A DNA stretch of 23,340 nucleotides from a virus: the IMG/VR virus record IMGVR_UViG_3300046811_000135, positions 1-23,340 of that record, one strand, 5' to 3'. Shown here piece by piece: positions 9,275 through 21,908 of this stretch. The position numbers were made by a program, and so were the translations under genes. How positions within the stretch are numbered: the stretch's first letter is position 1; each line of letters begins with the position of its first letter. The notes under the pieces are model-generated. The model had not been told where the DNA came from. It did not search any database and saw only the letters and a program-made list of their open reading frames with translations.

Positions 9275-10453
9275 TCAGGTGTCGTTCTTGGTCAGCTTGC
9301 GGGGCTCGTACATCTGCCCCACGCCGCGGTAGCTGACCTTGTGACGCGCCCAGATGTCCTGCTCGAATTCGGCCTCGCTGTTGCTGGCGGCCTGGGTCGC
9401 TTCGATGTCCCAAACGCTCATCCACAGAATCGCGGCCTTGAAATCGCCGTAGAACCACTGCGACGTCGAGCCCGTGCGGGCCTTCACGTACTGGTTGCTC
9501 AGCACCTTCGGCTGGCGGTCGCTGTAGGGATTCTTGCCCGTGGTGCGGATCGTGGTCGTCTGGGCTCGCATGTCCACGGTCTGAACTTCGGTCGCGCCGA
9601 CGATGCGATTCGCCGTGCGGACCAGGGCGGACGGAACCAGGATGGTCGGATTCGCCGGGATGCCGATGGGCTCGCCCGTGTTCGGATCGGTCATCGCGTC
9701 GAAAAGCAGATCGGCCTTCTCGAGGGCCCGCCATTCGTTGGCCTGGCCGTCGAGGGCATTGCCGGTCTGGCTGTTGATGTACGCGCCCGACGTGAGGTAG
9801 GTGTTCAGGCTCACGCCGTTGCGGTTGTAGTTGTTCTTCTGGCCGGTCGCGTAATCCAGGACTTCCTTTTCCTTGAGAACGGAAGCCCAGCGGGTGCCCT
9901 TGGACGCATAACTGAGAACCAGGCTCGTGCGGTCGGCGACGATGATTTCGCGCGTGACGGGAACAATGAAGCCATGCTTGATGGTCGCCGCGGTGTCGGT
10001 CCACTCTTCGTTCAGACCAACGTAGGGGTAGCGGGCACCTTCCTCGACGACTTCGGCCTTGTCGCCGATCTGGCCGACGCCCGGGATGCGCTCGCCGTTC
10101 AGGAACTCCGTCGTCTGCGTCGTGCAGAGTTCGGGCCACAACAGCGACGGGTCTTCGTAGGCTTCGCGGATCTTGTTGTAGACGATCTGGCCCGTGATGT
10201 TGCTGAAGTCGCCCGTGGAGACGGCCTGGGCGGCTTCCAGGATCGCAGCCCGGTTGCCACGGCCGCGGCGGAACTGGATTTCGTACAGAAGCTCGCGGCC
10301 GTTCGGGATGAGGGCTTCGAACAGGTCGCGCATCGAGAAGTTTTCGGGGCGCAGCTCTTTCGACTCGAGGCCTTCGCAAAGGTCGGCCATGCACTGCTGG
10401 GGCTCAAGCTCGTACTGCCGCTTGAGTTCCTTGACGTTGATCATCTTGAACAT
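9275..10453 (-). CDS. Major capsid protein (HK97-fold type)
   Basis: This is a protein of 392 residues. The ATG at 10453 follows AAGGA nine bases upstream (an ATG three codons later is an alternative). The N-terminus is helical and charged (INVKELKRQYELEPQQCMADL), the common N-arm and delta-like region. The middle shows capsid-type features: ELCTTQTTEFLNGERIPGVG, an EEGARYPYVGLNEEW stretch, a beta region with HGFIVPVTREIIVADRT and helix KEKEVLDYATGQKN. The C-terminal domain has PNTGEPIGIPANPTILVPSA and ends with a short WARHKVSYRGVGQMY segment. Length, location downstream of protease/scaffold and internal layout identify it as the capsid shell protein. I assign the HK97 fold by position and length. 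Confidence 0.82.
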   Translation of the reverse strand: MFKMINVKELKRQYELEPQQCMADLCEGLESKELRPENFSMRDLFEALIPNGRELLYEIQFRRGRGNRAAILEAAQAVSTGDFSNITGQIVYNKIREAYEDPSLLWPELCTTQTTEFLNGERIPGVGQIGDKAEVVEEGARYPYVGLNEEWTDTAATIKHGFIVPVTREIIVADRTSLVLSYASKGTRWASVLKEKEVLDYATGQKNNYNRNGVSLNTYLTSGAYINSQTGNALDGQANEWRALEKADLLFDAMTDPNTGEPIGIPANPTILVPSALVRTANRIVGATEVQTVDMRAQTTTIRTTGKNPYSDRQPKVLSNQYVKARTGSTSQWFYGDFKAAILWMSVWDIEATQAASNSEAEFEQDIWARHKVSYRGVGQMYEPRKLTKNDT

Positions 10454-12961: not shown

Positions 12962-13494
12962 CCCACACGCTGCAAAAACTCCTGGACGACGCGCAGGCCT
13001 ATCTGCAGGTCCTGTCCGACCGCCTCGAGGAAGAGCATCAGACCGGCGCCGCGACGGTGCGACTGCTGGGCCAGGATCTGCTGCGCATGGTTGCGGAGTT
13101 CGAAAAGCTGCAGGAGTTGGAGATGGTCGCGGGGGATCTGTGGCGGGAATACCTGGCGTCACGGGGCGATATCCCGCCCGGAAACGTCCGTGATGGACTC
13201 CGCGCCCTTAAACGATTCTTCACGCCACCTCGCGAGCCGGGCCGAGAAGGCTGCCCATCATGCGGCTGCTGGTTCTATCCAGATGCCGGGCCATGCGGGA
13301 ATTGCCTCAACCAAGCGAATGCCCGTGCCGCCCGAAGCATCCTCAACCCAGCGGCCTCAGAATCGGCGTCGCATAACAAAGGCAATTCCAGGCAATGTGA
13401 GGCGCCCCCTTCGGACGCTCCGCCGGATCCGCAGCCTCGAGCGGTGGATGAGGTAGCTGGGCCAGCCCCTTCTGCCACGGCTCCGGCTCCTTGA
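12946..13494 (+). CDS. Plus-strand coiled-coil and zinc-ribbon protein (182 aa)
   Basis: The ATG at 12946 follows GGAGGGCGA, an excellent ribosome site. The N-terminal ~80 residues form a long amphipathic helix (HTLQKLLDDAQAYLQVLSDR and LLGQDLLRMVAEFEKLQELE). A Cys-rich ribbon follows (CPSCGCWFYPDAGPCGNC). The C-terminal part is Pro/Ala/Ser-rich, probably disordered. Its final 152 bases run antisense to the 3' end of the minor head gene, a long convergent overlap. That part is read as disorder in this gene and as the conserved C-terminus of the head protein in the other. The plus-strand partner at 12545 overlaps its start. No function is recognised; a zinc-ribbon plus coiled coil suggests a nucleic-acid or protein-binding accessory factor. 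Confidence 0.65.
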   Translation: MSQPVTHTLQKLLDDAQAYLQVLSDRLEEEHQTGAATVRLLGQDLLRMVAEFEKLQELEMVAGDLWREYLASRGDIPPGNVRDGLRALKRFFTPPREPGREGCPSCGCWFYPDAGPCGNCLNQANARAARSILNPAASESASHNKGNSRQCEAPPSDAPPDPQPRAVDEVAGPAPSATAPAP

Positions 13495-14344
13495 AATACT
13501 CCGTCCCGTCCCGCGCGACATGCCACGGCCGCGAATTCGGGTTCCCGTGCACACTGTGAATCGTCCACCCAATCACCAGGTCCCCGAGCTGGTCCGCCGT
13601 CTGCTGCTGGGTGTGGTGGGCGATTGCCATCCCGTAGGTCCGCGCTAGCCGCTTCGCCGAGGTGCGAATCCCTTCCATCGCCGGGCGCAGGTCCTGCGCG
13701 ATCGCTTTCACATCCTTCCCCTGCGAATAACCGAGGCTGATGATCCCGGCGAGGATGTTCGGGCTGAACCTGGCGCTTACCGTGCCCCGTAGCCGCTGCT
13801 CCCAGGTCTGCCCGTTGATCTGCAGCCCGCGCACGATCCGGTAGACGCTGAGCCGGTCAGGGGGCGGGAAGAGGAGCGACTGAATCAGGTTGCGGGCTGC
13901 CGTCTCGTCGGTGGGGATGGCGTCCATGGGCATGTCGATCCGCAGGCCGGCGGCGTCCAGGGCGAACTGCAGCAAACCGGCCTCCATCACATCCCGGCTT
14001 TCGCGGACGCGGTGGACGTTGCCCTTCTGGGCCAGCGCCGCAGCCAGGTAGTTCGCCGGCAGCGTGCGGGCCAGGGCCTTCGCGGAATGCTCGTGGGCTT
14101 CCGTGGCGAGTCCGGCCAGGCCATCCGCAAGGACGGCGTCGAGCGCGGGGAGCGTGCCACGCAGGAGATGCCGGGCCTCCATGAACGCGGTTGCGCCCTG
14201 GGTGTGCGTGCGCAGGATGGACATCAGGCCGCGCCAGACGGCGCCCAAGGCCCTATCGGTGGCGTTGCCGATCCGGTCGGCCGCGGCGCTGGCGGCGAGC
14301 TGGCGGGCGTGGCCGTGGGTGGCGAGTTGGCGGGTGAGGGTCAT
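13343..14344 (-). CDS. Minor head protein, Mu gpF/SPP1 gp7 type
   Basis: This is a protein of 333 residues. The ATG at 14344 overlaps the portal stop as ATGA, indicating translational coupling. The N-terminal two-thirds are helical. The C-terminal region carries the family hallmark: VHGNPNSRPWHVARDGTEYF, then PHIAWNCLCYATPIL, matching the 'R..H...DG...' and 'NCrCy..P' signature of the Mu gpF/SPP1 gp7 head morphogenesis family. Such proteins bind the portal and enter the head early, and some carry toxin or nuclease domains. Here the extra module is on the portal instead. The last 152 bases are overlapped antisense by a plus-strand gene. The family call is strong. Confidence 0.85.
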   Translation of the reverse strand: MTLTRQLATHGHARQLAASAAADRIGNATDRALGAVWRGLMSILRTHTQGATAFMEARHLLRGTLPALDAVLADGLAGLATEAHEHSAKALARTLPANYLAAALAQKGNVHRVRESRDVMEAGLLQFALDAAGLRIDMPMDAIPTDETAARNLIQSLLFPPPDRLSVYRIVRGLQINGQTWEQRLRGTVSARFSPNILAGIISLGYSQGKDVKAIAQDLRPAMEGIRTSAKRLARTYGMAIAHHTQQQTADQLGDLVIGWTIHSVHGNPNSRPWHVARDGTEYFKEPEPWQKGLAQLPHPPLEAADPAERPKGAPHIAWNCLCYATPILRPLG

Positions 14345-17283
14345 TCCTTGATCGGGTGTAGTTTTCCGTCAGCCGAAACGGTCATGACTCGCGCGGGCAC
14401 CTTCTGCCCGGTCTGCATGGCCTTTACCGCGCGATGGTGCCCCTCTTCGATGTAGTCCTTTCCGTTATGCCTAATGACAAGAATCGGCTTATCCTCACGC
14501 AGCGGACCCTTGATGCGGTCTAGCGCATCGCTCAGGACGTTCCTTTGGGTGGCGATGAGGTTTTTTGGATCCAGCTTATGCGTGTGCTCGCTGGAGTTCA
14601 TGGCGTTGTGGCGATCGTTGCTGTTGATGCTCGGGTATGGCTTATTTTCCACTGGAAGCTGAATCGGTATCGCTTTCCGTTCTGGTAAAGACGGATTGGC
14701 TGGGCGCTTAGCCTTCGGTTTTGAAGCCGGCTTAGTGGCCGAAGAAACATCGACGCGCTCAACGGTATTTTGCATCCCGTGAATTCTTCTCGAAATGTGA
14801 TCCAGGGCATCCTTTTTCGATTTGAAGCGGCCAGGAATGCCTAAATCGTTCGCGACTTTTGCGGAATCTTTGACCGAGAGCGTTTTCGCCGCACCCTTAA
14901 TTGCAGCATCGAGAGCCGCGGGGTCCAGGTTTTTCTTGCTCGCGGCGTCAAGGTGTCCGCGGAATGCTGAAGTAGCTTGGTCTATGTTGCTCGGCGGAGT
15001 CGCCGGTTCGCTGGAATTCGCCGGCGGAATTTCTACGTTGTTGAATTCCGACGTGAGATGCTTAATAGAGCTGTCCTGGACTTTCTTGGGGTCGCCCGTA
15101 GCCTGGGGGAGATCGGTTCTCGCTAGGCGAATATCCCCGCGCTGATGCGCCGCCAGAAGATCCGCCTTGAATTGATCGAGGGTCTTTCCGCCAAGCTTTC
15201 CATCGGCTTTCAGCTTGTCGTAAACGTCAAGGATGTGAACCTTGTGAGGCATCCACTCCGGCGCCTCCGCGTGAGGCCGGCCGTTGAAGGCGTTCGGAAT
15301 CTCTTTGCCCGCAGCGTGAACTTCGTCGGCTAGGTTTTTGCCCCCCGGTTCAATGGCCTTCGCCGGCTGTTCCCATTGCTTCGTCTTCCGGTTGTAGACG
15401 GACCCCTGCCGCTTCTGGTGCCGCTGATTCTGCTGCCGCGTCCGAGGCCCGAATTCTTCCTTGGTCGGGTCGAAGGATTGAGCCGCAACGCGCTTGCCGT
15501 TCAGGTAGTGAATCTTCCGCCCGCGCTTATCCGTGATGACCCCCGTGAACCCCGCTTCCAGGCAAACGGCGTCCATCGACTCCAGCAGGGATTCGGAAAC
15601 GGGGCCACTCAGGCCGCCGCCTGAGCCCGGCTGTCCCTCGGGCGGAAGTCCGAACGGCGACGCGCCACCCCCCGCCCCACCCCCCTGCTCGTCCTGATAC
15701 TCCTGGTTATTCGCCTGCACCGTATCCCAATCCAGCCCGCGCTCGCTCGCGCACGTCTGCCGGTCCTTCCACCCGTTCATGACACCCAGCTGATCTTCCT
15801 GGGCCTTCTCCAGCTCGTTGCGATGCAGCACGGCCGGGGCCTCGACGTCCAGGTCCACGACGTCCAGCGTGTCCTTCGGGAGAAGCCCGCACTCCACGGC
15901 CCAGAGGATCGCCTTCCACACGATCAGCCCGAACGCAATCTTGTAGTATTCCTGGTCCGTCTGCCCGGCGCGCACGGCCGGGGCAGCTGCCGATTCCAGG
16001 CTGGAATAATTCCCATTGCTCGCGTCGCCGGTCCAAAATTCCGGAGCGCAGAAAGCCGCGTTCGCCTGGCGGAGATCCCCGCTCACGCCGGACAGATAGC
16101 TCTGCGTCTGATCAGCCGGCGGCGAGGCCAGCTCCTGCCCACCACCCACGCGGCGCACTGTGCCCGGCCGGATCCGCTCCACGTTCTCCGTGTGGCCCGT
16201 GGTTCCGTTGGTGCGCGTGAAGACCTTCACGGCGTCGCTCAGGTCCTGGGCCTGGGCCTGCGTGGCTGTGGTCGATTGCCAGATTTCCGCCGTCGCCGCG
16301 CGGACGGCCGCCCCCATGCTGGCGTGTTTCTGCAGCTTGGCGGCCCGCTCGAGGGCCTTGAGCGTGTCGAATTGGAAAGGGCTAATGCCGCGCTTGACCG
16401 TGCTTGCCGTGTCGAGGCCCTTCAGGTGGACGATCTCCTTCGCGGGGATCATCTCCCAGCTGCCCTTATCCTCGGGCTTGCCGCCCCCGCCACCCTTCGC
16501 GGACGGGTCCGGCCAGAAGGCGGCGTATTCCTCGGGCGTCTCCACGTCCTCGACGGGCTGCATCGAATGGCGAATGCCGACGGACCAACCTTCCTGCGCC
16601 GTGCCGCCGTGCCCTTCCCTGATCTGCTCCGGTTCGATGAAGCGGATGTACGTGCAGCCGTTCTCCTGGTGGAACAGCCGGACGAAGCACTCGCCGTCCC
16701 CGCCGTTCTCCCGCCGGAAGATTTCCCGCTCGCGCGTCATGGCGACGAGCATGTTGCTCCGCGGGTCGATCTGGTTCGCGTTGAAGCGGTTAGAGCGGAG
16801 GAAGTAGTCAACGAACGTCTGCGTTTTTTTCGCAGTGGCTTCCGCCTCGGGCGTCGGATCGTCACCCTTCGCTTTCGTCTTGTAACTGAATCCCTTGCCG
16901 ATGACGTTATTCGTCATGTTCTTGAGCAGGCCGATCGCGAAGCTGTTCGTCTGGCAAAGGATGCGGCTTTGCTGCCGGCGCTCGTCTAGCTCGACCTGCG
17001 TGCGCCAGATGGGCCAGTTGTAGCCGTGCCGGCGGTCGCTGGGGATGTTCGCCGGAACCCAGCGCTCGCCGTCTTCGTCCTGGCTCGAGGGGCGTAGCCG
17101 GTCCCAGAGATCCGAGCCGCCGAAGTCGTCCCACCAACCCCAGAGGCCCTCATAGAGATCGCGTTCGTAGCCGGCCTTCGCCGCGGCAGCCTGGACGCGC
17201 AGCAGCTTTGCCTGCTCCTTCGCTTCGGAGATGGTGGCCTTGATCTCGACGGGCTTTTTCGGGCGTCCGTTCAGGGTTGTCAT
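14341..17283 (-). CDS. Portal protein with a 420-residue C-terminal extension
   Basis: This is a protein of 980 residues; portals are usually 400-600. The ATG at 17283 follows AAGGAAG. Residues 1-530 are a lambda-family-type portal: RILCQTNSFAIGLLKNMTNN near 106-125, YIRFIEPEQIREG, IVHLKGLDTASTVKRGISPF around 285-305, and ASNGNYSSLESA at 421-432. A Gly-rich linker (about 533-560) leads to the extension: a short beta motif (RGRKIHYLNGKRVA), a winged-helix-like segment (about 678-727, VHILDVYDKLK ... FKADLLAAHQRGDIRLART), a SAP/HeH-like segment (about 798-836), a Lys/Pro linker, and a terminal ParB/sulfiredoxin-like segment (about 905-970, KPILVIRHNGKDYIEEGHHRA). The extension is lower in GC than the portal core. 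The portal call is firm; the extension domains are inferred. Confidence 0.8.
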   Translation of the reverse strand: MTTLNGRPKKPVEIKATISEAKEQAKLLRVQAAAAKAGYERDLYEGLWGWWDDFGGSDLWDRLRPSSQDEDGERWVPANIPSDRRHGYNWPIWRTQVELDERRQQSRILCQTNSFAIGLLKNMTNNVIGKGFSYKTKAKGDDPTPEAEATAKKTQTFVDYFLRSNRFNANQIDPRSNMLVAMTREREIFRRENGGDGECFVRLFHQENGCTYIRFIEPEQIREGHGGTAQEGWSVGIRHSMQPVEDVETPEEYAAFWPDPSAKGGGGGKPEDKGSWEMIPAKEIVHLKGLDTASTVKRGISPFQFDTLKALERAAKLQKHASMGAAVRAATAEIWQSTTATQAQAQDLSDAVKVFTRTNGTTGHTENVERIRPGTVRRVGGGQELASPPADQTQSYLSGVSGDLRQANAAFCAPEFWTGDASNGNYSSLESAAAPAVRAGQTDQEYYKIAFGLIVWKAILWAVECGLLPKDTLDVVDLDVEAPAVLHRNELEKAQEDQLGVMNGWKDRQTCASERGLDWDTVQANNQEYQDEQGGGAGGGASPFGLPPEGQPGSGGGLSGPVSESLLESMDAVCLEAGFTGVITDKRGRKIHYLNGKRVAAQSFDPTKEEFGPRTRQQNQRHQKRQGSVYNRKTKQWEQPAKAIEPGGKNLADEVHAAGKEIPNAFNGRPHAEAPEWMPHKVHILDVYDKLKADGKLGGKTLDQFKADLLAAHQRGDIRLARTDLPQATGDPKKVQDSSIKHLTSEFNNVEIPPANSSEPATPPSNIDQATSAFRGHLDAASKKNLDPAALDAAIKGAAKTLSVKDSAKVANDLGIPGRFKSKKDALDHISRRIHGMQNTVERVDVSSATKPASKPKAKRPANPSLPERKAIPIQLPVENKPYPSINSNDRHNAMNSSEHTHKLDPKNLIATQRNVLSDALDRIKGPLREDKPILVIRHNGKDYIEEGHHRAVKAMQTGQKVPARVMTVSADGKLHPIKE

Positions 17284-17545: not shown

Positions 17546-19132
17546 TCATGTGATCAGCCGGGGCGCTCCGCCCCCGGCCTCGTTCTCGCCCTTCGTCAGC
17601 AGGTGCCGCAGCAGCCGCTCGAGCATCTCCAGCGCATCCGGCCCGTCGTCATGATCCCCGTTCGGGAAGTCCCGAAGCTGCTGCACGAGCAAGGCCGCCC
17701 CCGGCGATCGCGACTTCACCCGCAGCTTTCGCTGGCTCAGGTAGGGCCCCAGGCGGCGCACCCGCATCATTTTCGCCACGTTGCCCGTCGGGATGCCATA
17801 GACCGCCACGGGGCGCGGCCGCTTCTTCATCTCGCGGGCGATCTCGATACAGAGCAGCTCCTGGAATTGATCCACTTCCGAGCCCCAGGCGTGCGGATGG
17901 AAGCGGTCGCAGAGGGCGAGGCCATCGCTGACGATCTTCGACGTGTCCCGCCGCTGCAGGTCGGCGTCGAGCCAGAGGACACCGTTCTTGTCGGTGCCGC
18001 CGTAGACGAAGGCGGAGTAATCCCCGTGCTTGGCGTCCTTGCCCTTCGACGGGTCCAGGGCGATCGCCTTCATGACGAGGTTGTCCGGCCAGGCGTCGAA
18101 CCAGAAGGCGGCATGGTCGAAGTATTCCGGGGGCCACTCGCAGGCCTCGGGATTCGTCGGGTCGTTCTGCCGCTCCGAGGCGAAGGCCGTGACGCCGATC
18201 GACACGCGAAGCAGCATCAGGGCATAGAGCGAATCCCGCTCGGGCCACACCACTTCGGCGCCGGCGTCCATGGCCTTCTGGTTCGCGAGGTAGAAGGCTT
18301 TCGCGTTGGCCTGCCGGTCATCGTCGTCGTGGTCCAGCAGGAATTGCTCCCACTCCCGCCACAGGTCCATGCGCTTCGGCCACGAGATGACGGACGTGAA
18401 CAGGTGCGAGGTCCAGCCGGCCCCGTCCTTCGGTGAGTGAAGCCGGCAGACGATGCAGTCTCGATGTAAAGCCGTTCCCAGAGCGATGATGTTCGTGATC
18501 GGGCTTCCCGCGTTCGATACGTCCTTGACCAGCCATTCCCAGGATCGCTCCCGCTGCAGGGCGCTCAGGATGTGCCCGGTGTTCTGGGGATCGTCCACGA
18601 TGATCAGGCTCGGCCGGTGCGATCTGTTCTTCCGTCCGCGTAATTTCGTGCCGGTGCCGATAGCCTCTATCATGACGCCGTTGGCCAGGCGAATCCGATC
18701 CTCTCGCCAGATGGCGCCCCGGCCGCTGAGATGGGCATAGTCCGTGCGGAGCAACTCGTTTGTTTCCAGCTCGGCCCGGATCGCGTCCAGGTATTTGTGG
18801 GCCTGGTCGCCCGTGTCCGAGGTGAGAATGATGTAGGGCTCGATGCCGTGGATCGCGAGGTAGAGCGGGTAGGCGAACGTGGACCAGGTGGACTTTGCCG
18901 CCCCGCGGGGCGCCAGCACGTTCAACCTCTGCCCGCGGGTTCGGTGGAAGTCGCTCAGCCGCGGCACCAGCCAGGCGTGAAATTTGGAGGGAGCGACCGG
19001 GAAGTAGCCAGGCACGTAGCGATAGGCCCACTCACGCAGCGGCGGCGCCGGGATCGGCCGGCTGGTCGCCCGGAGCAGCCGGAAGGCCGCCAGCTGCCCC
19101 TGAGCCTGCTGGATTAACGCTGCGAAGCTCAT
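17546..19132 (-). CDS. terL: Terminase large subunit (ATPase/nuclease)
   Basis: This is a protein of 528 residues. The ATG at 19132 follows GAGG at about seven bases. The N-terminal ATPase has the Walker A motif LAPRGAAKST (about residues 73-82), adjacent acidic Walker B LIIVDDP (about 176-182) and a motif III-like IALGTALH (about 216-223). The C-terminal nuclease shows the first acidic position in IALDPSKGKDAKHGDYSAF (about 357-375), a GSEVDQFQE segment (about 417-425), and the final acidic motif DDGPDALEML (about 495-504). All expected catalytic parts are present. It cuts and pumps DNA into the prohead through the portal encoded downstream. The start overlaps the small-terminase candidate by 101 bases. 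Confidence 0.93.
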   Translation of the reverse strand: MSFAALIQQAQGQLAAFRLLRATSRPIPAPPLREWAYRYVPGYFPVAPSKFHAWLVPRLSDFHRTRGQRLNVLAPRGAAKSTWSTFAYPLYLAIHGIEPYIILTSDTGDQAHKYLDAIRAELETNELLRTDYAHLSGRGAIWREDRIRLANGVMIEAIGTGTKLRGRKNRSHRPSLIIVDDPQNTGHILSALQRERSWEWLVKDVSNAGSPITNIIALGTALHRDCIVCRLHSPKDGAGWTSHLFTSVISWPKRMDLWREWEQFLLDHDDDDRQANAKAFYLANQKAMDAGAEVVWPERDSLYALMLLRVSIGVTAFASERQNDPTNPEACEWPPEYFDHAAFWFDAWPDNLVMKAIALDPSKGKDAKHGDYSAFVYGGTDKNGVLWLDADLQRRDTSKIVSDGLALCDRFHPHAWGSEVDQFQELLCIEIAREMKKRPRPVAVYGIPTGNVAKMMRVRRLGPYLSQRKLRVKSRSPGAALLVQQLRDFPNGDHDDGPDALEMLERLLRHLLTKGENEAGGGAPRLIT

Positions 19133-20322: not shown

Positions 20323-20501
20323 GGCGAGCCCTCCGATTTCGCATCGAACAACCCGGCCGGCTTCGGCGGCAAGAGGGCCTCATCCACCCTCCGCTCGAGG
20401 TCGCGGCAATGGCTGATCAGGGCCTGATCCCGGGTGCGGAAATACTCCTTTTGCTTCGATCGCATGAGCTTCACCAGGGAGCGGAATTCGGGGTCGGTCA
20501 T
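20319..20501 (-). CDS. Small charged phage protein (60 aa)
   Basis: The ATG at 20501 overlaps the methylase stop (TAATG), and its own stop overlaps the resolvase start, so it is locked in a translational chain. The protein starts MTDPEFRSLVKLMRSKQKEYF, followed by a helix (ISHCRDLERRVDEAL) and a Pro-rich end containing PAGLFDAKSE. Short proteins with 'F..LV..MR..Q..YF.tRd' are widespread in phage replication regions. The C-terminal AGLFDA echoes the end of the neighbouring resolvase. Function unknown. Confidence 0.7.
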   Translation of the reverse strand: MTDPEFRSLVKLMRSKQKEYFRTRDQALISHCRDLERRVDEALLPPKPAGLFDAKSEGSP

Positions 20502-21355
20502 TAGAAGAGCATCCTTTCGGCGTGCCCGTTGACGAGCAGGACCTCCGGCGCAACCGTGGTCCCTTCGCCTTTATTTCGCCCTGGGTTGATCATCGATTTG
20601 ACGAGAGCGCAATCGATCTTCTGCCAATCCGGATAAAGCTCCTCGAGCTTAGGATGGTCGTAATAGCTCACCACGATCCTGCACCGTTCGAAACGCTTGA
20701 TCGCCGCGGCAAGCCGCGCATGATCATCGGCCGCGAAGTCGTGAACATACTTCGCCCCTTTGGTGAAGTAGGGCGGATCGATGTAAACCGCCGTTCCTTC
20801 GGCGTCGTCGAGTCTCTCAAGAACCGTGATCGCGTCCCGATTCAGAATCTGCACACCCACAAGCCGACGATGCCACTCTGGCAATGATTCGCAGACTGAT
20901 TCCCACCGCGTGGCGCCGTTGCCACCGTTCGCCGAATAGCGGACGGCAAATGTCCCCGTATGCGAAAGCGGCGTGCCCGAGACGCCATTCAGGCCCATCC
21001 ACGAAAAAACGATATACCAGTAGGCCCGCTCGACGTCGGGCGTGCCGGGCTCAATCTCCCGGCCGATCAGGAACGCCTTAGCGATCGGAAGCAACGCCTC
21101 GTGAAACAGACAGCGATTCACTCGGCCGTAGAGGTCGAGAGCCGTCTTCTCGCCCTGGACGACAAGCGCGAGGTTGATCAAGTCCGTGTGCAGATCGTTG
21201 ACCGTCTCGTAAGTGCAACGCTTTTTCGAGAACAGTACCGCACACGATCCGCAGAACGGCTCCCAATAGCAGCGATGCTTCCCCAAGGCCTCAACGATGC
21301 GCGGCGCCAGCGTCCGCTTGCTGCCGAACCAGGGTGCAAGAGCCGAAATCTTCAT
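20501..21355 (-). CDS. D12-class DNA adenine methyltransferase (Dam-like)
   Basis: This is a protein of 284 residues. The ATG at 21355 follows AAAGGAAG, and the motif starts immediately after it, so the longer upstream frame is not used. Features of the D12 class (Dam family): APWFGSKRTLAPRI at residues 7-20, the SAM-binding WEPFCGSCAVLF at 31-42, VNDLHTDLIN at 52-61, and the catalytic YIDPPYF at 191-197. A NPGRNKGEG segment and a final helix complete the fold. It methylates the N6 position of adenine in a recognition site that cannot be read from the sequence. A phage copy probably protects virus DNA from host restriction. It is followed by two small coupled genes and the resolvase. Confidence 0.92.
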   Translation of the reverse strand: MKISALAPWFGSKRTLAPRIVEALGKHRCYWEPFCGSCAVLFSKKRCTYETVNDLHTDLINLALVVQGEKTALDLYGRVNRCLFHEALLPIAKAFLIGREIEPGTPDVERAYWYIVFSWMGLNGVSGTPLSHTGTFAVRYSANGGNGATRWESVCESLPEWHRRLVGVQILNRDAITVLERLDDAEGTAVYIDPPYFTKGAKYVHDFAADDHARLAAAIKRFERCRIVVSYYDHPKLEELYPDWQKIDCALVKSMINPGRNKGEGTTVAPEVLLVNGHAERMLF

Positions 21356-21383
21356 TCGCTTCCTTTCGCCGGCGGCGCCGGGG

Positions 21384-21908
21384 TTACTCCTTCCCGGCCA
21401 CTTCACGCGCGAAATTAAACACGCCCTGCGACCAAACCTCTTCGACATGGCGCACGGCCAACACCTCGCCCGAATGCTCGCCGTGCCGCGAGGCCATCAG
21501 ATGGAAGCCGCCGAACTGGAAATCATGCTTCCGCAGCCGGATCTTCGGCCGGTTCGCGTCGTCGTACATGAACGCGCCGACCTTGTTCTTGCGGACTTCG
21601 ATGTGATGCAGCTCGTGATCGAGCACGGCCAGGCGATGCTGCTTCGTCCATTCCTTCCAGCCGTCTCCGCCCCCATCCAGGCAGATCGTCACATCCTTGA
21701 GACCGGCCACGCGATCGCGGAGGCTGTTGATCTTCACGATCGCCTTCGCCGGCCAGCCCGCATGAACGAGCGCCGGACCTTCCTCGTTCGCGGCGAAGAG
21801 GTAGGTGATCGAGACGTCCGCCTTGCGGATTTCCTCGTGGTTTTTGAGGATCAGCCGCGCGGCCATCTCGATCGTGTCGCTGTCGCATTCCTGGTAGTAC
21901 GTGGACAT
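21384..21908 (-). CDS. Putative phage metallopeptidase (HELHH motif)
   Basis: This is a protein of 174 residues. The ATG at 21908 follows AAAGGAG; the frame is open further upstream, but the longer version lacks a ribosome site and is low-complexity. The zinc-protease motif LDHELHHIEVR lies at about residues 96-106 (H98, E99, H102), with LRKHDFQFGGFH (about 125-136) likely giving the third ligand. The N-terminal SDTIEMAARLILKNHEEIR and ICLDGGGDGWKEWTKQHRLA stretches match the layout of the 'putative phage metallopeptidase' family. The substrate is unknown. It could cleave a host regulator or a phage protein. It sits between the helicase loader and methylase in the replication block. Confidence 0.82.
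   Translation of the reverse strand: MSTYYQECDSDTIEMAARLILKNHEEIRKADVSITYLFAANEEGPALVHAGWPAKAIVKINSLRDRVAGLKDVTICLDGGGDGWKEWTKQHRLAVLDHELHHIEVRKNKVGAFMYDDANRPKIRLRKHDFQFGGFHLMASRHGEHSGEVLAVRHVEEVWSQGVFNFAREVAGKE

What the first reader, a model, noticed from the sequence alone, without database searches (positions are those of the whole stretch)
14341..15610. Portal protein carries a long C-terminal extension ending in a ParB/sulfiredoxin-like segment
Seen: one uninterrupted 980-residue frame. The first ~530 residues are portal-like; the remaining ~420 include a winged-helix-like stretch (IRLARTDLPQ context), a SAP/HeH-like stretch and a terminal KPILVIRHNGKDYIEEGHHRA motif. Known: ParB/Srx-fold proteins have a G-x-H-R type motif with 'I.ATQ..v' upstream, and phage minor head proteins (Mu gpF/SPP1 gp7) sometimes carry toxin or nuclease domains delivered with DNA. 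Inference: this phage may have moved such a module onto the portal, with a role in DNA binding, host takeover or exclusion of rival phages. A fold on the DNA-facing end of the portal is a novel arrangement worth testing.
Basis: partly seen in the sequence, partly recalled or inferred. Interest (0 to 1): 0.8.

Follow-up and report, generated by a model that had tools for sequence, protein, structure and literature searches.

The report
Phage portal with ParB-like tail
A metagenomic virus carries, on the protein ring through which its DNA enters the capsid, an acquired tail ending in a nucleotide-binding-type module of the kind also seen in bacterial toxins, which suggests that the ring doubles as a carrier for an early-infection weapon or DNA-handling device.

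Summary
One uninterrupted 980-codon minus-strand frame (14341-17283) joins a lambda-family portal (PF05136) to a ~420-residue tail, and the last ~90 residues are a ParB/sulfiredoxin (ParB/Srx) domain: PF23719 E 1.6e-7, AlphaFold model at pLDDT 92.5, and all 50 listed Foldseek PDB rows in the ParB/Srx group. The SAP/HeH reading is plausible but unproven; the winged helix is unresolved. The tail looks acquired (fourfold-site GC3 0.66 v 0.88 in the core). Ten of 16 assessable relatives of this portal carry tails over 150 residues, none matching the window's at BLASTP E 0.01. The same GHHR module sits on an unrelated portal family (PF06381, three contigs, one also with an ADP-ribosyltransferase), on a MuF-type protein and on XkdF proteases. 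Effector domains on portals are in print (PBECR, 2H, InPase, Nudix, ART), as are DGHHR ParB toxin domains. In the listings I searched I found no ParB/Srx domain on a portal, and a 2025 survey of the fold does not use the word in its main text. Best reading: capsid-internal, portal-borne NTP-binding effector or DNA-handling module; reaction and delivery are inferred. New variant of a known kind.

The parts
14341..17283 (-). portal gene, 980 aa, one open frame
   Evidence: PF05136 and phrog_21
15973..16998 (-). lambda-family portal core matched by PF05136 (residues 96-437)
   Evidence: E 5.1e-15, 55.9 bits
15259..15648 (-). junction/linker, residues 546-675; composition still close to the core (fourfold GC3 0.833)
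   Evidence: AF2 single sequence, block pLDDT 45-68, no strands
14749..14991 (-). residues 765-845, helical HeH/SAP-like stretch
   Evidence: AF2 helices, block pLDDT 67-85; no SAP match or among the rows listed
14344..14685 (-). residues 867-980, ParB/sulfiredoxin-fold domain
   Evidence: PF23719 E 1.6e-7; model pLDDT 92.5; Foldseek and VIA matches
14545..14547 (-). Gln913 of the L-x-x-x-Q motif, present in 18 of 18 aligned rows
14431..14442 (-). GHHR, residues 948-951, predicted phosphate-binding loop; present in 18 of 18 rows, 13 of which were picked by a pattern containing GHHR
13343..14344 (-). separate MuF-type head protein, 333 aa, start codon overlapping the portal stop; MuF match spans 207-324 of 333 residues, so no effector tail
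   Evidence: PF04233 E 1.8e-5, 25.9 bits, below its 29.6 cut-off; PHROG head morphogenesis; overlap seen
17546..19132 (-). terminase large subunit
   Evidence: phrog_38 E 6.7e-82
9275..10453 (-). major capsid protein
   Evidence: PF25209 E 4.6e-14

Best explanation
The gene makes a portal whose C-terminus was extended by acquired modules ending in a DGHHR-type ParB/Srx domain. Twelve copies should sit inside the capsid against the packaged DNA (inferred from known portal architecture). The domain most likely binds a nucleotide through its GHHR loop and acts as early-phase cargo, cutting or clamping DNA or modifying a nucleotide or host target at the start of infection, like the polyvalent effectors proposed for MuF proteins. 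Shown: the fusion, the ParB/Srx fold (by prediction and fold comparison), foreign composition, tail variability, recurrence of the module on other head proteins, and rough evidence of purifying selection on its counterpart in a second portal family. Inferred: location inside the head, nucleotide binding, the reaction, and release from the portal.
For: Fold. L-x3-Q in 18 of 18 aligned rows; GHHR in all 18, but 13 were selected through a pattern with GHHR, so the unbiased part is the window and four named records found by plain tblastn. Same module on PF06381 portals L038, L041, L048, with an ART on L048; on a MuF-type protein in DLP_3; with XkdF proteases in L039, L042 and L011; beside ART-PolyVal in L046 (28.4 bits, under the 31.2 cut-off). 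Weak matches (E 0.03-0.9) to DarB-like antirestriction proteins of Burkholderia phages. DLP3 gp2 was found in purified phage by mass spectrometry, 8 peptides, 20% coverage, 1 of 21 phage proteins listed (PMC7326821, section read). DGHHR is the conserved motif of ParB toxin domains (PMC3482391). Tail composition 0.664 v 0.882, permutation p 5e-5, the floor of 20,000 permutations. pN/pS of the ParB tail in three PF06381 portals 0.14-0.24, v 0.34-0.43 in their cores. No PF13614 ParA and no PF02195 in the 46.9-kb copy at E 0.001.
Against: Portals are not normally ejected (general knowledge), so an effector on a portal needs a release step, for which there is no evidence here. No immunity gene, no catalytic proof. 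TM-scores to solved ParB/Srx structures are modest (listed TMq up to 0.52) and VIA Z stays under 8. PDB sequence matches are weak (ParB E 0.016, the other six 0.6-1.2). The window reads EGHHR; 16 of 18 aligned rows read DGHHR. None of the other tailed portals found in the window's own portal family shows the ParB module, so selection on this very copy cannot be measured, and pN/pS in the PF06381 group rests on near-saturated synonymous sites. The authors of the DLP3 paper called gp2 in the virion sample surprising and allow that it may not be structural.
Confidence: 0.55

Rival explanations
1. Structural role: the tail is a DNA-binding crown extension that organises, senses or retains packaged DNA, with the ParB/Srx domain as an NTP-gated DNA contact or clamp; nothing is delivered.
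For: Portal C-termini can project into the capsid (P22, PMC4992974, start of abstract in the listing). HeH-like helices; SAP-like and MarR-like stretches, all under their Pfam cut-offs, in tails of relatives L015, L016, L005. ParB and Noc are DNA clamps and are among the fold matches.
Against: Tails are absent or short (60 residues or fewer) in 6 of 16 assessable relatives and mutually dissimilar in the rest, unlike an essential crown. ADP-ribosyltransferase and C39 peptidase tails do not fit a DNA-crown role.
Confidence: 0.22
2. The ParB/Srx module acts in the infected cell before or after assembly, for example as a SerK/SbnI-like small-molecule or protein kinase or a superinfection-exclusion factor, the portal being only a convenient expression partner.
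For: SerK shares DGHHR and the fold (SerK Z 7.0); weak NCBIfam SerK match, E 0.014. Six of 17 distinct carriers are small stand-alone frames.
Against: In 8 of 17 distinct carriers other than the window the module is fused to a head protein or encoded next to the portal; a free enzyme would gain nothing from a portal.
Confidence: 0.12
3. Decoy: the domain mimics the ParB/Srx (GmrS, DndB) subunits of host restriction systems and poisons them.
For: GmrS is predicted ParB/Srx with a DGQQR loop (PMC4619093, passages); injected T4 internal proteins block GmrSD (PMC12373910, passages).
Against: No GmrS- or DndB-family match of the domain was listed in Pfam scans; no host is known.
Confidence: 0.05
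4. Recent hitchhiking fusion with no function, on its way to loss.
For: Foreign composition; 6 of 16 assessable relatives do without a long tail.
Against: The tail's ~420 codons remain open with intact motif residues; the equivalent fusion on PF06381 portals appears to be under purifying selection.
Confidence: 0.06

Closest known systems
Polyvalent and effector-bearing head proteins (Iyer et al. 2017, PMC5512222; PMC9503650)
   Same: effector-type domain fused to a portal, MuF or head protease encoded among late genes
   Different: portal fusions named in the passages I read are PBECR, 2H, InPase, Nudix, ART and lysozyme; no ParB/Srx portal is named there, and the DdrB-like ParB family described is another one
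DGHHR ParB toxin domains of polymorphic toxins (PMC3482391)
   Same: ParB/Srx superfamily, DGHHR-type motif, C-terminal position
   Different: carrier is a phage portal, not an RHS or haemagglutinin protein; no adjacent immunity gene; first motif residue is E
Stenotrophomonas phage DLP3 gp2 (PMC7326821)
   Same: GHHR ParB/Srx domain at the C-terminus of a head-type protein next to the portal; detected in the virion sample
   Different: carrier is MuF-type (PF04233 E 2e-4, under cut-off; PHROG minor head protein), not the portal; its authors link ParB to phagemid lysogeny
SerK/SbnI free serine kinases, sulfiredoxin, ParB/Noc
   Same: fold; SerK shares the literal DGHHR loop
   Different: no SerK C-terminal part; no PF02195 ParB match and no ParA partner found

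Membership tests
Lambda-family phage portal (PF05136) | profile match over the portal core | tested here: met
   55.9 bits v cut-off 32.9
ParB/sulfiredoxin superfamily | ParB/Srx fold | tested here: met
   pLDDT 92.5 model; the 50 listed of 168 Foldseek PDB rows are Srx, ParB, Spo0J, Noc, KorB, PadC, SerK, SbnI or the SerK-like 1vk1; VIA Z up to 7.2, rmsd 2.9 over 76 residues
ParB/sulfiredoxin superfamily | G-x-x-R type phosphate loop with conserved Arg | tested here: met
   GHHR at 948-951, aligned with GERR of 4umk ParB and with DGHHR of SerK; conservation among pattern-picked rows is by construction
ParB/sulfiredoxin superfamily | nucleotide binding or hydrolysis | not testable with these tools
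   needs a binding assay
Pfam PF23719 (VapB-like) | score over curated cut-off of 27 bits | tested here: met
   31.7 bits for the last 114 residues, but 26.5 for the whole protein
Canonical ParB of ParABS | PF02195 match | tested here: not met
   no match at E 0.001 in 5 of 5 records incl. the window and its 46.9-kb copy; control genomes ring in 10 of 14
Canonical ParB of ParABS | ParA (PF13614) encoded nearby | tested here: not met
   none in 5 of 5 records; control genomes ring in 14 of 14; records may be fragments
Polymorphic toxin with DGHHR ParB domain | DGHHR motif in a C-terminal ParB domain | tested here: inconclusive
   window has EGHHR; 16 of 18 aligned rows have DGHHR
Polymorphic toxin with DGHHR ParB domain | immunity gene directly downstream | tested here: not met
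   the portal stop overlaps the start of the MuF gene
Phage polyvalent/effector-bearing head protein | effector-type domain fused to a virion structural protein among late genes | tested here: met
   portal between TerL and MuF genes
Phage polyvalent/effector-bearing head protein | present in the virion and delivered | not testable with these tools
   of the homologues only DLP3 gp2 is known to me to have virion mass spectrometry (PMC7326821)
MuF polymorphic toxin | MuF domain in the same polypeptide | tested here: not met
   MuF is the separate gene 13343-14344
DdrB-like ParB (family named in PMC5512222) | profile match | tested here: inconclusive
   no such Pfam family listed at E 1 or 0.5; divergent members could be missed
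SAP/HeH domain | SAP fold or profile | tested here: inconclusive
   helices only; no SAP or the rows listed
Winged helix | helix-turn-helix with wing strands | tested here: inconclusive
   low-confidence model without strands

The most novel reading that the evidence does not exclude
The portal ring is a general, hypervariable cargo platform: in at least two unrelated portal families phages swap C-terminal effector modules (ParB/Srx NTP switches, ADP-ribosyltransferase, C39 peptidase, DNA-binding pieces) onto the inward face, and a release step frees up to twelve copies that enter the host with the DNA.
Probability: 0.35. Interest if true: 0.75.

Novelty: new variant of a known kind. Interest (0 to 1): 0.55.

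Why it matters
Portals are usually treated as conserved, passive gateways. A lineage in which 10 of 16 assessable portals carry long, mutually dissimilar tails, and a toxin-type nucleotide-binding module found on two unrelated portal families, point to the portal as a cargo site beside MuF. It makes an open question testable: how cargo fixed to a ring that stays with the capsid could act in the host. It also adds a context that the 2025 survey of the ParB-CTPase fold (PMC12704722) does not mention in its main text (supplements not seen); that survey searched with PF02195 and TIGR00180-type models, and the five records tested here have no PF02195 match.

Tried and rejected
Rejected: chromosome/plasmid partition (no PF13614, no PF02195); two genes fused by an assembly error (near-identical copy in a longer contig); ordinary crown extension (long tails absent or dissimilar in relatives). 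The closest portal with a full core, L013 (52% over the core), has a different 170-residue tail with a hydrophobic, membrane-like stretch by eye.

Led nowhere: protein searches of phage records with the tail (E 0.1) and with the whole portal (E 0.01); PDB sequence search with the tail alone; genome-contig scans with portal and PF06381-tail profiles (60 and 55 pattern stretches, none confirmed), so no host is known; single-sequence AlphaFold of residues 640-880 (mean pLDDT 59.2) and its structural matches, generic helical (best Z 6.0; no SAP or winged-helix protein recognised among the 50 listed rows, the only DNA-binding ones being HNF-1A at Z 3.9); an alignment of putative winged helices (A8), too poor to use. 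My reading of kinase-like stretches in the L015 and L048 tails is by eye; Pfam gave no kinase.

Junction motif H-x(2-5)-GQF[ST]-x-GG: a strict pattern, written after seeing examples, hits 15 times in 417 open frames of 200 aa or more; 12 hits are in tailed portals, 1 in L053 (a frame cut by its contig end, portal by similarity only) and 2 elsewhere. The looser first pattern gave 63 hits against a mean of 37.7 in shuffles. A collection scan of 9 loci shows it also in frames that look like head proteases and others. It is not in the window's tail, so I did not build on it. The pattern count (22 of 3,738 frames with L...Q...GHHR) is circular, as most of those loci were fetched by that motif, and is not used as evidence.
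Full report
Observation. The 980-codon frame at 14341-17283 (minus) is real. Residues 96-437 match the lambda-family portal model PF05136 and 97-605 the PHROG portal family. The gene sits between a terminase-large-subunit gene (with a 78-codon frame between) and a MuF-type gene whose start overlaps the portal stop. A copy with 1 mismatch in 14,940 bases lies in a 46.9-kb IMG/VR contig.

The last 114 residues. They match PF23719 at E 1.6e-7 (31.7 bits, cut-off 27). The family is named VapB-like antitoxin, but the rows aligned here look like ParB/Srx: 18 of 18 have L-x3-Q and GHHR, all 18 match PF23719 and 12 of 18 match PF08857, a putative ParB-like nuclease family, at E 0.1. A caution: 13 of the 18 rows were fetched through a pattern that contains GHHR, so the constancy of GHHR in them is by construction; the window and the four named records found by plain tblastn have it without such selection, and the L-x3-Q part was not selected for. 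The AlphaFold model made with a 14-row alignment has mean pLDDT 92.5 and pTM 0.83. Foldseek against the PDB gave 168 matches with E up to 10; the 50 listed are sulfiredoxins, ParB, Spo0J, Noc, KorB, PadC, SerK or SbnI, or the SerK-like 1vk1; the best has E 1.5e-4 with TMq 0.44. VIA gives Z 7.2 for a sulfiredoxin, 7.1 for Noc, 7.0 for SerK and 6.8 for ParB; these are under 8, so taken alone they would be middling, but they point the same way. A search of viral predicted structures again lists many ParB/Srx proteins, among them 445- and 245-residue entries whose lengths fit DLP_3 gp2 and the Rhizobium phage protein (identity by length only). A profile search of PDB sequences with 18 homologues returned 7 sequences up to E 10, all ParB, SerK or its relative 1vk1, or SbnI: ParB at E 0.016, the rest at 0.6-1.2; SerK shares the literal DGHHR. 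The 14-sequence profile gave ParB at 0.01 and two unrelated chains at 0.14 and 0.27.

The middle of the tail. A single-sequence model of residues 640-880 has mean pLDDT 59.2; a four-helix stretch at residues 766-843 has block pLDDT 67-85, compatible with a helix-extended-loop-helix unit, but no SAP match was listed. The presumed winged helix at 676-764 is unresolved.

Origin. Fourfold-degenerate GC3 is 0.882 in the core, 0.833 in residues 546-675 (not distinguishable, p 0.18) and 0.664 in residues 676-980 (permutation p 5e-5, the floor of 20,000 permutations). Windows of 101 codons in the tail range from 0.61 to 0.72; in 11 other frames of the window that I took as genes the 5% point is 0.76 and the minimum 0.652, so the two ranges overlap at the edge. 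In 12 of 13 other tailed portals the tail is also lower than the core, in some by little (L005, L019); the exception is L010 (not tested one by one). The tail looks acquired.

Relatives of this portal. A profile scan of viral contigs gave 18 loci, one being the copy. Of the 17 others one (L014, same contig as L007) is cut within the core. Tail length was taken as frame length minus the end of the match to the window's portal. Of the 16 assessable, 10 have tails of over 150 residues (L005, L010, L013, L015, L016, L017, L019, L021, L029, and L028, cut by the contig end) and 6 have 60 or fewer (L006, L008, L018, L020, L025, L027). Their contents differ: a C39 peptidase on L010 (PF03412 E 1.2e-16), a SAP-like stretch on L015 (E 2e-4) and MarR-like stretches on L016 and L005 (E 1.3e-3 and 0.014), the last three under their cut-offs, and otherwise unknown sequence. 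All-against-all BLASTP of 14 tails at E 0.01 found, outside the PF06381 group, one 24-residue match (L005-L028), and the window's tail matching the three PF06381 portals (E 2.6e-7, 6.7e-7, 1.2e-4), each alignment taking in the ParB part. None of the ten other tailed portals of the window's own family shows the ParB module.

Other carriers of the module. A profile scan matched 183 stretches and confirmed 17 loci, one the copy. The other 16: three PF06381 portals (L038, L041, L048; E 3.1e-104 to 1.5e-110), of which L048 also carries an ADP-ribosyltransferase (PF03496 E 4.7e-16); three frames with the module before an XkdF-type protease (L039 and L040, one residue apart, and L042; PF14550 tested for L039 and L042); one beside ART-PolyVal (L046, 28.4 bits, under its cut-off); six small frames, of which the one in L043 is the gene of Arthrobacter phage Sonali; and three identical 270-residue frames (L047, L049, L050). 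From 27 named records with weak tblastn hits (23 phage, 4 plasmid; E up to 10) I looked at five: DLP_3 gp2 is a MuF-type protein with the module at its C-terminus (PF04233 E 2e-4, under its cut-off; PHROG minor head protein E 2.8e-17), the Rhizobium phage protein joins it to XkdF, the Gordonia phage Mareelih protein follows its portal (weak: PF08857 E 0.055), Sonali gp83 stands alone (PF23719 E 1.4e-30), and a Halobellus plasmid protein joins it to CBS domains. Counting identical or near-identical copies once, that is 17 distinct carriers besides the window; in 8 the module is on a head protein or encoded next to the portal (3 portals, 3 proteases, 1 MuF, 1 Mareelih), and in 1 more beside ART-PolyVal. 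Among the three PF06381 portals its pN/pS is 0.14-0.24, against 0.34-0.43 for the portal core and 0.41-0.50 for the linker; synonymous sites are near saturation, so these are rough.

What it does. In print, ParB domains of polymorphic toxins have a strongly conserved DGHHR motif predicted to be part of the active site (PMC3482391, passages). Osa has ATPase and DNase activity, and plant sulfiredoxin a nuclease activity besides its reductase function (PMC4619093, passages). The 2025 survey of the fold reports CTP, ATP or GTP binding by different members, heads one section with the statement that sequence does not reliably predict which, and does not contain the word portal in its main text (PMC12704722, passages and outline). 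The DLP3 paper lists gp2 among 21 phage proteins found by mass spectrometry (8 peptides, 20% coverage), calls it surprising, allows that some listed proteins may not be structural, and links ParB to phagemid lysogeny (PMC7326821, passages and the section on structural proteins); the MuF-type part of gp2 would explain its presence. Fusions of PBECR, 2H, InPase, Nudix and ART domains to portals are reported and most are proposed to be injected (PMC5512222, PMC9503650, passages). I therefore favour capsid-internal cargo that binds a nucleotide and acts on DNA, nucleotides or a host defence early in infection; residues 676-845 may help bind DNA. The weak step is delivery, since portals stay with the capsid: a cleavage, or action from the capsid, has to be assumed. 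The structural rival (DNA-handling crown) is the main alternative.

Verdict. The feature is real and well delimited; the ParB/Srx part is established at the level of predicted fold; function is inferred. It is a new variant of a known kind. Literature searches in which I saw no portal-ParB/Srx report. They cover open-licence PubMed Central only, and only the listed top rows (15 each of 212, 27, 47 and 177 papers; 1 of 1 and 4 of 4) were seen; of the four papers, PMC9319048 was not opened.

Noticed in passing
L048:3243-6767: A PF06381 portal of 1175 residues carries the GHHR domain and an ADP-ribosyltransferase domain (residues 983-1146); the stretch between looks kinase-like by eye and resembles phage proteins some of which are annotated as ADP-ribosyltransferases.
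   Followed up: partly
L010:9308-11497: A portal of the window's family ends in a C39-type cysteine peptidase (PF03412 E 1.2e-16), which could in principle process head proteins.
   Followed up: partly
L010:11233-13215: The MuF-type protein next to that portal appears by eye to be interrupted by an intein-like insert.
   Followed up: no
L013, L015, L017, L005, L028, L029, L038, L041, L048, L053: A short linker motif H-x(2-5)-GQF[ST]-x-GG recurs in portal tails, often where a module seems to begin, and also in other phage frames incl. protease-like ones; possibly a cassette junction or cleavage site.
   Followed up: partly
L031:825-2162 (phage DLP_3 gp2): Annotated as a ParB-like nuclease and its presence in virions called surprising by its authors, but it has a MuF-type part, so it is more likely a head protein with a ParB/Srx tail.
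   Followed up: partly
window 17546-19132: The terminase resembles that of Mu-like Pseudomonas phages such as DMS3 and JBD30 (about 36% identity) although the portal is of the lambda family.
   Followed up: no
window 20501-21448: A D12-class adenine methyltransferase gene lies upstream of the terminase (PF02086 E 9.4e-21) with the lowest fourfold GC3 (0.764) of the 11 frames measured.
   Followed up: no
BFVD row 11: Part of a Ralstonia phage RP31 protein annotated as RNA polymerase beta-prime matches the ParB/Srx model (Foldseek E 7.4e-4).
   Followed up: no
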